A DNA stretch of 28,771 bases, taken from Calocera cornea HHB12733. Lineage: Eukaryota > Basidiomycota > Dacrymycetes > Dacrymycetales > Dacrymycetaceae. Below the pieces are notes generated by a model that had not been told where the DNA came from, searched no databases, and saw only the letters and a program-made list of their open reading frames with translations. Both the position numbers and the translations under genes were made by a program. The stretch lies in contig KV424035.1 of NCBI GenBank assembly GCA_001632435.1, forward strand, positions 71,929 to 100,699, written 5' to 3'. This document shows, one piece after another, positions 23,688 to 28,771 of this stretch. How positions within the stretch are numbered: position 1 is the stretch's first letter; every line of letters starts with the position of its first letter.

Positions 23688-26290
23688 TCAAAGGCCGTCA
23701 GTCGGCGAGCAGTGGCCGAACTCTGTCCCGCCGCTCGGGCCCATCATCAGCTACACAAGCATCAGCACGCGGCATAGGACATAAGAGGAGAGGAGGAGGA
23801 GGGCGCACCTTGACCGTTTGGAAGGTCGTGTAGCCCGCTGCGAGGATGCCGAAGACGATGAGGAGCCAGTCTGTGAGGCGCTCCGTGCGCGTCTTGGCGA
23901 CTGCTTTGAGGTGGAGCATCGCTGGGTAGACGTAGCACAGGGGCACGCTGAGCACATGGGTCAGTCAGTGAGGGTGCGGGGAGATAAGGTGGGAGGGGAG
24001 GAGGACGCACCAGGCGAAGCAGCCGATGAGGGAGACGAACTTGTCGAGGTCTGCTGCGCCCGCCCAGGAGACCATGGTGCACAGGAGGACGATGCAGAGC
24101 CTGAAACCGTTCTTCATCCATTTCACGCCCGGGTCGGCCTTGCCCGAGCGGGTGAAGAGGCCGTTCTCCATTATGCGCAGGGCGGGGAAGAGCTGGAGCG
24201 GGGCGGAGAGGAGGATGGCGAGGGCGTAGATGAACTGGACGACCTGGACGAACTTCTGGTCCTGGGGAAGGTTGATGATCACCACGGTTTGGATGTCCTT
24301 GCCGTAGGCGGCGTAGGCGAGCGCGCCGCCGCCGCCGAAGAGGAACATGAGGAAGATCATCACGCCGCTCAGGACGCGCGGGAACTTGCGCGGCTCGCGC
24401 ATCGACTCGGTGATGGGGATGACGAGGCCGATGCCCTCGAAGGAGAAGACGGCGGTGCTGGGTTCCTGTCAGTGGGGCTCGGAAGTTGGGGGAGGGAGGG
24501 CGGGCTTACCCCACGAGAAGCGGGAAGTCCTTCGGGTTGAAGAGCTCGACGTGGGCCATGCCGTTGTGAGCGATGGAGGAGATTTCGTTGCCGAAGATGT
24601 ACACGAGGCCGACGAGGATGAACGCGTCCGCGACGAGCGCGGTCGTGGAGAGCTTGGCGAGGTTGCGGATGAGGGAGAGGGGCACGAAGAGGACGAGCTC
24701 GGAGAAGATGAGGTACTGGATCGGCACGTCCGTCTTGCAGTTTGTCACGGCGAGGACAAAGGCCTTGAGGTTCTCTGCGACGAAGATGAGGTAGGCGGAG
24801 ACGAAGCCGAGCTGGGAGAGCACGATCGAGCCCAGGATCAGGAGCCGCATCCACCGCCCGTACAGCACCCCGCCCATCTCGCCGAACCCGCCTGGGATGA
24901 CGAAGCGGGTCTTGACGAGGAGGAGGAAGGAGTGCAGCGAGATGAGGGCGATGAAGCAGAGGACGAAGGAGGAGAAGAGGATGCCGCCGTTGAAGAAGGC
25001 CTTGCCGAGGAAGAGGATGCCCGTGCCGACGAAGGATTTGAGCAGCTGCGCGAGCGTTAGACGCGCATATACGTTGGTCAGTTGAGCGTACCATGAGGAC
25101 CGCCTGCGTAACGGTAGCATCGCCCGCGCGCACGATACTCTGCGACCTGCCCCTCCCGCCCCGAGTCAAGCTATGCGCCCTGAGCAAGCGTGTCCGCTCC
25201 GTCGTCTTGGACGGCGGGATCGCCCCTTCAGGAACGATGTACTCTAGCCCGTCCTCGACGCTCCCGCCGCGCAGGAGGGACTCGCGCACCGCGTCCTCAG
25301 CCGAGGCGCGGATCGTCAGGTCCTCCTCGTCCTCCTCCTCGATCTCGTCGAGGTCCTCTCCAGCCTGGCGCCTATTCAGCCCCTGTTCGCCCGCAAGAGG
25401 AAGAGACTCACGAAATGCCCAAACAGGAGCAAGAAGTCGATGAAATTGTTGACCATGGCCGGCTGCTCCTCCCCGCGCGCATTCGCCTTGGCGGCGAGGT
25501 ACGCCCTGCGCATACCGTTCGGCTGGTGGATATGGTGCAGGGCCGGGTCGGGCAGGTCCGCCCTGCGCGGGTTTGAGAAGCTGGCGGAGCGCGGCCGCTT
25601 GAGCGCGTTGCGCGCCTCGCTCTGCCAGCGGTAGATGCCGTGGGTGATGTCGCTGCCCTCGTTGTCGAACTGGATAGGGAACGGCTCGGTTTCGTCTGCC
25701 GCGGCGGGCGAGGGGGTGGCCGCGCCGCTGTCGCCGCGGGAGAGGAAGCGGTCGAGGGTGCCGTAGCCTGTTCCTGCTTCGCTCGGGCGGCGGGAGGGCG
25801 TGCTCGCCCCGCCCTCGCGCTCCTCGCGGGAGACGAGGTGCCGGCGGACGATCTCGGCCTTCTTCTCCTTCGGCATGTCCTCGACGGCCTTGGCACGGTC
25901 CTCGTCCTCCTCCCCGCCGCGCGGGGTGGACTGGCCCGAGTGCTGGCCCCTGGAGACCCTCCTCTCTGCCAAGCTCCTAGCGCCATAGCTCTGCGACAGG
26001 CCGGCCGCGGGCGAGCCGTACCTCGGATTGGGGATGTTGGGGACTGGCGGGGAGGCGGTGGAGTGGCTCGCCCTGCGGGGCTGGGGCGAGCTGCGGTCGC
26101 CGGTGCCGGGGATGGCGAGGGCGGTGTGGTCGGGGGGTGTGCCCTGTGCGCTTGAGCGTGGGCTGGACTGTGACATGAGGAGCTGGCGGGTGAGGTTGGA
26201 CTTGTGCTGCGTCGCCGTCGCCGTCGTCGTCGCCGTCGTCGGTGGTGGCGGGGTGGGGGGACGGCTGGGCAGGTTTGTGGGAGGGGACAT
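23688..26290 (-). CDS. Vacuolar amino acid transporter, AVT3/AVT4-like (AAAP family, 6 exons)
   Basis: It probably exports neutral or basic amino acids from the vacuole. Exons in coding order are 25412-26290, 25092-25364, 24510-25045, 24011-24457, 23809-23947 and 23688-23750, with introns of 46-63 nt, giving 778 aa. The first 380 residues form a long cytosolic tail: Pro/Thr/Ser-rich, with GYGTL, an RWQSEARNALKRPRS segment and an acidic EEEDEEDLTI patch. The membrane part begins at residue 385 with LLKSFVGTGILFLGKAFFNG, the hallmark first helix of this family, and continues through about ten to eleven hydrophobic segments, including TAVFSFEGIGLVIPITESMR and a helix ending LLIVFGILAAGYTTFQTVK. 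It ends after a short FGHC tail. Long N-terminal tails are usual for fungal Avt3/Avt4. The specific substrate is not readable from sequence. Confidence 0.92.
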
Positions 26291-26585
26291 TGTGCTGTGC
26301 TGTGCGGGATTAGGCAGAGGGTGAGACACGCGGGCGGGTCTGTGACCGGATGGGCCGTGGGCTGGGAGAGGCGAGGGCGAGGGCGAGTGCGAGCACACGC
26401 AGAGGGGAATCAGAGCGGATTGGCGTGCGGGTACGCCTATTACGCACGCCCTTGCTTGGGGGGGACGAGGGAAAGGGGCCGAGGCCGGGTGCCTTCCGAC
26501 CGTCTCGCCACCCGGCTCTAGGGGACGCGGGACTTACCGCGCCGCGTCACCAGCTCCTGTAGGAGACCATCCAGGGTTCCCGACA

Positions 26586-26623
26586 CGGAATCCGGAAATC
26601 GAATTCCGGATTCCGGATTCCGG
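26586..26623. repeat. Inverted and tandem GATTCCG cluster
   Basis: A 12-base arm CGGAATCCGGAA (26586-26597) is followed after 6 bases by its exact reverse complement TTCCGGATTCCG (26604-26615), which repeats in a 7-base step (26611-26622). The whole tract is thus a hairpin-capable inverted repeat with one arm duplicated in tandem. It may be a foldback relic, a regulator array or a slippage product. Confidence 0.65.
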
Positions 26624-26688
26624 CCGGGGCTGTGCTAATTTGCTCCCGCTTTTTGCTTCCGGGTTAAGTATTTGCTTCCGTTTAGAAT

Positions 26689-26960: not shown

Positions 26961-28745
26961 CTACACATCACCAGGGACAGAAAGCCATTTGGGGTCAACT
27001 GGGCGCAGGGGGGGACAAATGTCATACGGGCCGCTTGAAGGAATGTTGAGGCCAATCTTGAGGATCCGGTAGTTGGCATCCACGGGATTGGGGTGCAACT
27101 CATACACCGAGTTCTCGCCATCCGTAAACCTGAAGACCGCCCTTCCCTTGCACTTGTGGCGGCAGGTAAAGTGCCAAGCGCCCTCCAGTGTCTTCTTCTT
27201 GTACTGCATCAGCATTCCACACTTCGGGCAGTTCAGGTCGTTCTCGTTGCCGGTCAAGTTCTTCGACGGGGCACCCCATGTGTACCGGAACCCAGCCCCG
27301 CGTGCACCGAAAACAAAGATGTCGAGACCAAAAGTGGGCGTTGACACCTCATTGGTATACCCCTTCAGGACAGCTTTCTCCTGGGGCAAGTGGTCCCGAT
27401 AGAATGCACGCAGGAAGGGGGCCAGCCAGATCTCTGCCACACGCTGGGAGTTGAAGACCTTCGCCGTGAAGCTGATGACCGTATTGAAACCAACACTAGA
27501 AGTAGTCAATATAGGTACAGATACAGAATGTAAAGATACATACGTGCATGCCATAACCGAGGGCAACGCCTTCAACACCATACCGCTGCACGTCAGCAGA
27601 ATAAGGGTCGACTCTTCGCAGGCAGTCTTTGGGACAACTTCTCCAGCAATGGCAGTGCAAATCTGTCAGAAAGAATTAGACTACTTTCAGAGTGCTATAG
27701 ATGAGTACTTACTTGAAGGGGGGTCCCATATTTGTGGTATGTATCGCCCTTATTGTACAGGAGCTTGCCGTCGTGGTCATTAGAGTGAACGTCGACAACC
27801 ATGAGGAAATGAAATTTCTTCTTGTAGCTGTCAGGTAGTGTTAGTATACCAAGATAGTCCAGGAGCAAGAACACTTACTGGTAAGTCATCTTGCGCACCA
27901 GTTCGGCTATATGAACTTGGATGTTTCGGGTTCCTTTGGCCTGTACCGGGTTGCTCTGGTCCGACGACCACGTTGCGCGGTCGTCCTCGAGCACCACATC
28001 CACCCAATGGGCACGATGAGCCTATTTAGATGTCAGCAATTGTTCCCAAGCAGAGAGGGACACTTACCACTTTACGAGACCTGTACGTCTCACCCAGATA
28101 CCCCTTCACGATCCTTGAAGAGAGGTCCGACATGCTGTGCATATCTTTCTCCTGCCAGTGCACCATCACGACGATGATCGGTTCAGCATGGACTGGACCT
28201 TGAGACCATTGGGTGAGGTTCCCAAGATAATTGTACTATTAAAAATCAGTGCAATGCCTTCTTCATGTCAGGAACTACTCACGGGCGGCTTCGACATCTT
28301 GTCATCCTTACAGCATTTGATGCATTTGATGCCCTCTGGAGTATCCGCAATTGCCCTCGTGACATCAGCACATCCACGTCCACCTGCAGTCGTGATGCAA
28401 AAGGCGCGGCCACAGGTGTTGCAGTCAGCCAGAGCGCTGGACTCAAAGCTACTACGGCAGACAGAACAATGCTACATTGAAGTTAGCATCTACCAAGAGC
28501 AATGTGTGAGAAGACTTACTGTCAGCTTCCTGTACCGCGCATGAGGGGCTCCCAGCGCCGCCATTAAGTTGCAGGCAGTTTCAGCCTTTGTGGTCCCCTT
28601 GGACACCCCATTCCCAACCTTCCCATCCGCCCAGAGATAGTCCCTGTCCATCTGCATGACACGCTTGGCTTGCTCCGGGCGATCTCTGGGGGCCACCTCC
28701 CTGTTTCTCTGCCAATACTTGTAGATGAGGGCAGGAGCACTTCCC
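26961..28745 (-). CDS. Zinc finger plus caspase/CHAT-like domain protein, 5' end outside window
   Basis: Seven exons are visible in coding order: 28520-28745, 28283-28471, 28068-28235, 27879-28021, 27713-27827, 27544-27662 and 26961-27495, with introns of 46-51 nt, encoding the last 497 aa. The first visible exon starts after an acceptor (ttag), so more exons lie to the right. A Cys-rich finger comes first: HCSVC, then CNTCGRAFC, then CIKCC, resembling a treble-clef PHD/FYVE-type fold. Next comes a probable caspase-fold core: strand IIVVMVHW; strand FHFLMVVDVHSNDHDGKLLY with a candidate catalytic His at 27785-27787; LILLTCSGM with a candidate Cys at 27588-27590; then VGFNTVISF and FLRAFYRDHL, as in CHAT domains. 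A C-terminal zinc ribbon has CPKCG and CRHKCKG. Protease activity is inference. The gene may belong to an expanded mushroom family of unknown role. Confidence 0.75.
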
Positions 28746-28771
28746 CTAATGAAGAGTAAGTGAAGAACATG

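What the first reader, a model, noticed from the sequence alone, without database searches (positions are those of the whole stretch)
26961..28745. Possible caspase/CHAT-like protease fused to two different zinc modules
The partial gene joins a Cys-rich treble-clef-like finger, a core with the His-then-Cys order of clan CD proteases (VDVHSNDHDG, then LILLTCSG, then VGFNTVISF and FLRAFYRDHL), and a C-terminal zinc ribbon (CPKCG...CRHKCKG). I know no described fungal architecture of this kind. In other organisms CHAT and caspase-like proteases trigger immune cell death by cutting partners such as gasdermins, so a role in fungal self/non-self response or stress death is a reasonable hypothesis. 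This is the best candidate for an undescribed system in the window.
Basis: partly seen in the sequence, partly recalled or inferred. Interest (0 to 1): 0.75.

Follow-up and report, generated by a model that had tools for sequence, protein, structure and literature searches.

The report
Jumping gene carries caspase-like protease
The odd fungal gene is not an immune gene of the fungus but an accessory gene of a family of DNA transposons, and it encodes a protein predicted to fold like the cell-death protease caspase between two zinc-finger-like modules, which suggests that this transposon may use a protease of its own to handle its host.

The parts
26555..26562 (.). left copy of the 8-bp target site duplication of the transposon
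   Evidence: TCCTGTAG here, TCCTGTAC after the matching right end on C129: 7 of 8 bases
26563..26635 (.). left terminal inverted repeat of the KDZ-type element (about 73-75 bp, imperfect), starting GAGACCATCC
   Evidence: alignment border shared by copies and inverted match to the right ends on C52 and C80
26961..27495 (-). exon 7: end of the caspase-like core, C-terminal zinc-ribbon-like module, stop codon
   Evidence: splicing and translation; 97% match to P0001
27150..27230 (-). C-terminal CxxC...CxxxC zinc-ribbon-like module
   Evidence: four cysteines conserved in 4 of 4 aligned sequences; no significant family or structure match
27255..28187 (-). caspase/CHAT-like core (genomic span, introns included)
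   Evidence: AlphaFold models of P0002 and P0001 and structural comparison
27544..27662 (-). exon 6, holds LLTCSG
27588..27590 (-). predicted catalytic Cys (C305 of the 497-aa product)
   Evidence: two residues after the end of a core strand (Cys162 of P0002); present in 9 of 9 genomic copies
27713..27827 (-). exon 5, holds VDVHSND
27785..27787 (-). predicted catalytic His (H256 of the 497-aa product)
   Evidence: two residues after the end of a core strand (His113 of P0002); present in 9 of 9 genomic copies
27879..28021 (-). exon 4
28068..28235 (-). exon 3, first strand and helix of the core
28283..28471 (-). exon 2, eight-Cys PHD-like finger (cysteines span 28313-28468)
   Evidence: all eight Cys invariant in 3 of 3 aligned sequences; sub-significant PHD hits
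28520..28745 (-). partial upstream exon; the rest of the gene and of the element lies beyond the contig end
   Evidence: matches P0001 from residue 275; contig ends at window base 28771

Best explanation
Shown: the gene is an accessory gene at the left end of a family of KDZ-type cut-and-paste DNA transposons in a dacrymycete fungus. Shown by prediction only: its product has a caspase/CHAT-like (clan CD) core with the His and Cys in the catalytic positions, flanked by an eight-Cys finger resembling PHD fingers and a C-terminal CxxC ribbon. Inferred: the core is an active cysteine endopeptidase. Inferred with less certainty: the finger brings it to chromatin or to the transposition complex, where it cuts a host or element protein and so helps the transposon be expressed or mobilised, as the TET/JBP dioxygenases carried by other fungal KDZ elements are thought to help by acting on DNA methylation.
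Against: No sequence-level match links the core to caspase, metacaspase or CHAT (Pfam; PDB sequences; hhalign with 4 of 11 host CHAT domains, probability 0.2%, a weak test with so few sequences). Model confidence is moderate (mean pLDDT 65.9, pTM 0.70; full length 44.0 and 0.41). Foldseek alone gave no match below E 1e-3; 4 of its top 5 are clan CD but most later rows are unrelated. The structural list is dominated by a few much-solved proteins (caspases 3, 6, 7, MALT1), so its rows are not independent. Nothing shows activity, substrate or localisation. The KDZ domain itself scores below its cut-off (18.9 against 26.6 bits). For the C295/C279 copies I could not show that they lie in a KDZ element. 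dS between the types is 1.6-1.9, near saturation. Parts of the C52 and C80 elements read N, so a further gene could be hidden.
Confidence: 0.55

Rival explanations
1. The protein is a non-proteolytic accessory of the transposase: the caspase-like core serves as a scaffold in the transpososome and the two zinc modules bind DNA or histones, helping target choice or end synapsis.
For: It lies in one cassette with the transposase and a Cys-rich, AT-hook-like protein; no sequence link to known proteases.
Against: The His and Cys are kept in 9 of 9 copies although the most distant copies are only about 45-51% identical, and the other core cysteines are not kept.
Confidence: 0.2
2. The protein is an addiction or killing factor: a caspase-like death effector whose release harms cells or spores that lose the element.
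For: Caspase-like CHAT domains act in fungal regulated cell death with gasdermins (review PMC12881547, passages read).
Against: No antidote or pore-forming gene was recognised among the element pieces scanned, though parts of the elements read N.
Confidence: 0.1
3. A host defence or allorecognition gene, merely carried along by a transposon.
For: Caspase-like core; the host genome holds 11 ordinary CHAT loci.
Against: It is in all 7 readable left ends of the family, in fixed order with the transposase where both ends are held, and shows no profile similarity to the 4 host CHAT domains compared.
Confidence: 0.05
4. The protease processes the element's own proteins (maturation of the transposase or the middle protein).
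For: Cassette organisation; an own protease is usual in retroelements and Polintons (recalled).
Against: 17 of the 23 CxC6-bearing loci of this genome have no copy of the gene detected near them (some lie near contig ends, so this is an upper figure), so KDZ transposases do not generally seem to need it.
Confidence: 0.1

Closest known systems
TET/JBP-bearing KDZ transposons of fungi (Zisupton, Dileera, Kyakuja; Kojima 2025, PMC12730594; abstract, passages and sections 3.2.1 and 4.2 read)
   Same: Fungal KDZ-type DNA transposon carrying an extra gene besides the transposase; 8-bp target duplications as in Zisupton and Dileera.
   Different: The extra gene is a predicted caspase-fold protein, not a TET/JBP dioxygenase; the words caspase and peptidase do not occur in that paper's main text. 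Inverted repeats of about 75 bp here, whereas the Kyakuja families there have 7-bp duplications and no inverted repeats.
Cryptococcus KDZ1-KDZ3 (PMC12810828, passages read)
   Same: 9-11 kb elements, inverted repeats, 8-bp (KDZ1) or 4-8-bp (KDZ2, KDZ3) target duplications.
   Different: CxC1-type transposase and 139-241 bp inverted repeats; the word caspase does not occur in the main text.
CHAT proteases (SAVED-CHAT 8tl0; fungal CHAT-gasdermin pairs, PMC12881547, passages read)
   Same: Best structural match; His then Cys after consecutive core strands.
   Different: No Pfam CHAT match and no profile similarity found; zinc modules instead of SAVED, TPR or NLR partners; borne by a transposon.
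Caspases (C14) and C11 clostripain-like proteases
   Different: 4-12% identity in aligned residues among the listed rows; no caspase motif of the QACxG type (motif recalled).

Membership tests
KDZ DNA transposon | Cys clusters associated with KDZ transposases (CxC families) | tested here: met
   CxC5 89.3 bits (cut-off 26.9) and CxC6 93.9 bits (cut-off 27.5) in the right-end gene of the C80 element
KDZ DNA transposon | KDZ DDE transposase domain | tested here: inconclusive
   18.9 bits against a cut-off of 26.6, E 0.0013, from one exon; the genome-wide KDZ search does not list the C52, C80 or C95 elements
KDZ DNA transposon | terminal inverted repeats and 8-bp target duplications (Zisupton/Dileera type) | tested here: met
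   TIRs and 6 end pairs, 4 with 8 of 8 and 2 with 7 of 8
Peptidase clan CD | caspase-like alpha/beta fold | tested here: met
Peptidase clan CD | His then Cys, each at the end of a core strand, conserved | tested here: met
Peptidase clan CD | proteolytic activity | not testable with these tools
   needs an enzyme assay
CHAT family (PF12770) | sequence match to the family profile | tested here: not met
   no Pfam match; hhalign to 4 of the 11 host CHAT domains probability 0.2% (low power)
Peptidase C14 (PF00656) | sequence match to the family profile | tested here: not met
   no Pfam match; only one locus, not this one, matched in this genome
PHD finger | C4HC3 zinc pattern and profile match | tested here: inconclusive
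   eight conserved Cys, a Cys where PHD has its His (pattern recalled); PHD E 0.073 below cut-off, behind a B-box model at 0.044; 5 of 8 sub-significant PDB rows are PHD proteins (two of them by recall), behind 3 ribosomal eL34 rows; single-sequence search gave BRE1 RING at E 0.39

The most novel reading that the evidence does not exclude
A eukaryotic DNA transposon that carries its own chromatin-directed caspase-fold protease as a counter-silencing or regulatory tool, a protein-cutting counterpart to the TET/JBP dioxygenases of related elements.
Probability: 0.35. Interest if true: 0.85.

Novelty: new variant of a known kind. Interest (0 to 1): 0.62.

Why it matters
Caspase-fold proteases are known from cell death and immunity. 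A conserved one kept as a standing gene of a cut-and-paste transposon would show that mobile DNA has adopted this fold for its own use, and would give a defined protein with which to ask how fungal transposons escape silencing. It also warns against reading multi-copy caspase-like genes in such genomes as host immune genes. I saw no paper that describes a caspase- or CHAT-like gene in KDZ or other fungal DNA transposons in paper searches (all 9 and all 4 hits listed; 20 of 68, 20 of 33,097, 20 of 46, 15 of 15 and 20 of 512 listed). The library is partial, and the founding KDZ paper (Iyer et al. 2014, recalled) is not held, so this is not proof of absence.

Tried and rejected
Host immune gene with a gasdermin partner: disfavoured because of the transposon context; I did not run a gasdermin profile. 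Subtelomeric gene family: considered because many copies lie near contig ends; rejected since copies on C52 and C80 are internal and have inverted repeats and target duplications, and contig ends are where repeats break assemblies. Chromodomain in the N-terminal part of P0001 (my own reading by eye): no Pfam or PDB support, dropped. Wider distribution: three protein searches gave only Calocera cornea, Calocera viscosa and Dacryopinax primogenitus; these searches need shared 5-residue words, and only the 7,994 candidates sharing most words were scored, so diverged relatives may be missed. Viral structure library: no match below E 1e-3. Foldseek on PDB: no match below E 1e-3. The C206 left-end pattern hit matches only the first bases and then diverges, not counted; the 8 one-mismatch hits were not examined. 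The C61 right-end variant and the C124 right end have no matched left end; left ends C200 and C218 have no matched right end. In the dN/dS run my patterns did not recover all five exon pieces from every copy (exons 3 and 5 missing for C80, C218, C222; exon 2 for C200, C48, C295, C279; exon 6 for C295, C279), so each pair uses only shared pieces; of 36 pairs, dS was undefined in 8 and zero in 4.

Full report
Observation. On the minus strand, seven exon pieces between 28771 and 26961 join through six GT..AG introns of 46-51 bp into one open frame that ends in a stop. The window ends exactly where contig C122 ends (100,699 bases), so the gene lacks its 5' exons. A database protein of 771 aa, P0001 (CALCODRAFT_488309, Calocera cornea), matches at 97% over the whole query; the window's part starts at its residue 275. 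I take the organism to be Calocera cornea from these protein names; the contig lengths given for P0001, P0002, P0004 and P0005 (39,421, 196,321, 18,038 and 12,399) equal those of C222, C48, C279 and C295. The genome itself is unnamed.

Copies. A protein search of the window's own genome found 36 exon-level matches: near-identical copies on C122 (the window), C52, C80, C218 and C222, a second type on C48 and C200, a third, more diverged pair on C295 and C279, and a 52-residue stretch on C95. DNA comparison of these loci showed sharp common borders and short inverted matches between the two ends on C52 and C80.

Transposon. On C52 and C80 the unit is about 10.25 and 8.86 kb long, N stretches and, on C52, a nested Tc1/mariner-type gene included; it starts GAGACCATCC and ends GGATGTACTG, with imperfect inverted repeats of about 75 bp. 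The left-end sequence occurs at 9 exact places in the genome: eight are true left ends (C48, C52, C80, C122, C199, C200, C218, C222), the ninth (C206) diverges soon after. C199 runs off its contig after 95 bases; the other 7 of 8 carry the gene. The right-end sequence has 7 exact places and one with a mismatch. Comparing the 8 bases outside 8 left and 8 right ends gives 6 pairs with at least 7 of 8 equal: C52-C52 (7), C80-C80 (8), C222-C179 (8), C122-C129 (7), C48-C95 (8), C199-C7 (8); none of 20,000 shuffles reached six such pairs, and 1,589 had at least one. So the window's element continues on C129. It inserted about 270 bp upstream of the likely start codon (26290, read) of an amino-acid transporter gene (Aa_trans, E 4.3e-31 and 1.2e-27 for two pieces).

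Companion genes. The right-end gene, on the same strand as the finding's gene, has CxC5 (E 2.7e-25) and CxC6 (E 7.1e-27) clusters and a weak KDZ match (E 0.0013, below cut-off). CxC6 lies 1,393-1,401 bp from the right end in 6 of 6 contigs where both are present. Between them a gene on the other strand encodes a Cys-rich protein with an AT-hook-like stretch, without a family match over its cut-off. Of 23 CxC6 loci in the genome, these 6 belong to elements with this right end; the other 17 have no copy detected near them, though some lie near contig ends and are unresolved. The gene thus seems specific to one KDZ lineage. The 8-bp duplication agrees with Zisupton and Dileera rather than Kyakuja as described by Kojima (PMC12730594).

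Exchange of modules. The two ends do not share one history. The gene of the C52 copy is 96.7% identical in protein to that of C80, and that of C48 (whose right end is C95 by target duplication) only 72%. The transposase pieces show the reverse: C95 is 85-93% identical to C80 over most pieces, C52 66-87%, and in DNA the right ends are 88.8% (C80-C95) against 76.0% (C52-C80). The left module with the caspase-like gene therefore seems to have been exchanged between element backbones. This counts against strict co-evolution of gene and transposase but for the gene being a module that elements keep.

Conservation. The motifs VDVHSN and LLTCSG are present in 9 of 9 genomic copies read and in P0003; database models P0005 and P0006 stop before or start after them. 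Counting synonymous and non-synonymous change (NG86, 169-319 codons) gives dN/dS of 0.21-0.29 in the 7 pairs of near copies with dS above zero, 0.14 for C295-C279, 0.09-0.13 between the C122 type and the C48/C200 type with dS 1.6-1.9, and 0.27-0.30 for the 6 comparisons with C295/C279 where dS could be computed. The gene is kept for its protein.

Zinc modules. The eight cysteines of the finger are invariant in 3 of 3 aligned sequences. Profile hits are sub-significant: 3 ribosomal eL34 rows at E 0.13-0.15, then 5 PHD proteins at E 0.22-0.46. The C-terminal CxxC ribbon is kept in 4 of 4 and has no useful match.

Mechanism. Shown: accessory gene of a transposon family with near-identical, so recently mobile, copies, under purifying selection. 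Predicted: clan CD protease fold with an intact dyad. Inferred: active protease, used by the element. I favour action on a chromatin or silencing protein because of the PHD-like finger and because other fungal KDZ elements carry TET/JBP enzymes thought, without experimental proof, to oppose methylation (PMC12730594). Self-processing, scaffolding and addiction are rivals.

Limits. The C295/C279 copies are 98.6% alike over 5.07 kb and may lie in another element; C295 has a weak integrase-core hit upstream (E 0.013, below cut-off). Copy counts depend on a draft assembly.

Noticed in passing
L024:1272-2444 (inside the KDZ copy on C52): A Tc1/mariner-type transposase gene (DDE_3, E 8.2e-16) lies nested in the C52 element, between two pieces matching the element's middle gene, so that copy's middle gene looks interrupted.
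   Followed up: partly
L023/L024 (C52), L026/L027 (C80), L029 (C48), L036 (C95): Left and right modules of the elements have conflicting relationships: C52 and C80 share a near-identical caspase-like gene but diverged transposases, C80 and C95 the reverse.
   Followed up: partly
L027:154-1725: Middle gene of the element: Cys-rich protein with an AT-hook-like KKPRGRP stretch, no Pfam family over cut-off, about 80% identical in the C95 copy.
   Followed up: partly
L032:4224-4787: Weak integrase-core hit (rva_4, E 0.013, below cut-off) upstream of the diverged gene copy on C295; the gene may sit in another transposon type there, as reported for TET/JBP genes.
   Followed up: partly
window 26563-26640: The inverted repeat itself contains a nested palindromic run of GGAATCCGG-type repeats, seen in altered form in the other copies read.
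   Followed up: no
window 23965-26290: An amino-acid transporter gene (Aa_trans) starts about 270 bp from the insertion; the element may affect its promoter.
   Followed up: no
whole genome G000: 11 loci with ordinary CHAT domains in long open frames (1,074-1,204 aa) and one exon-level peptidase C14 match, a metacaspase by its motifs, in this fungus.
   Followed up: partly
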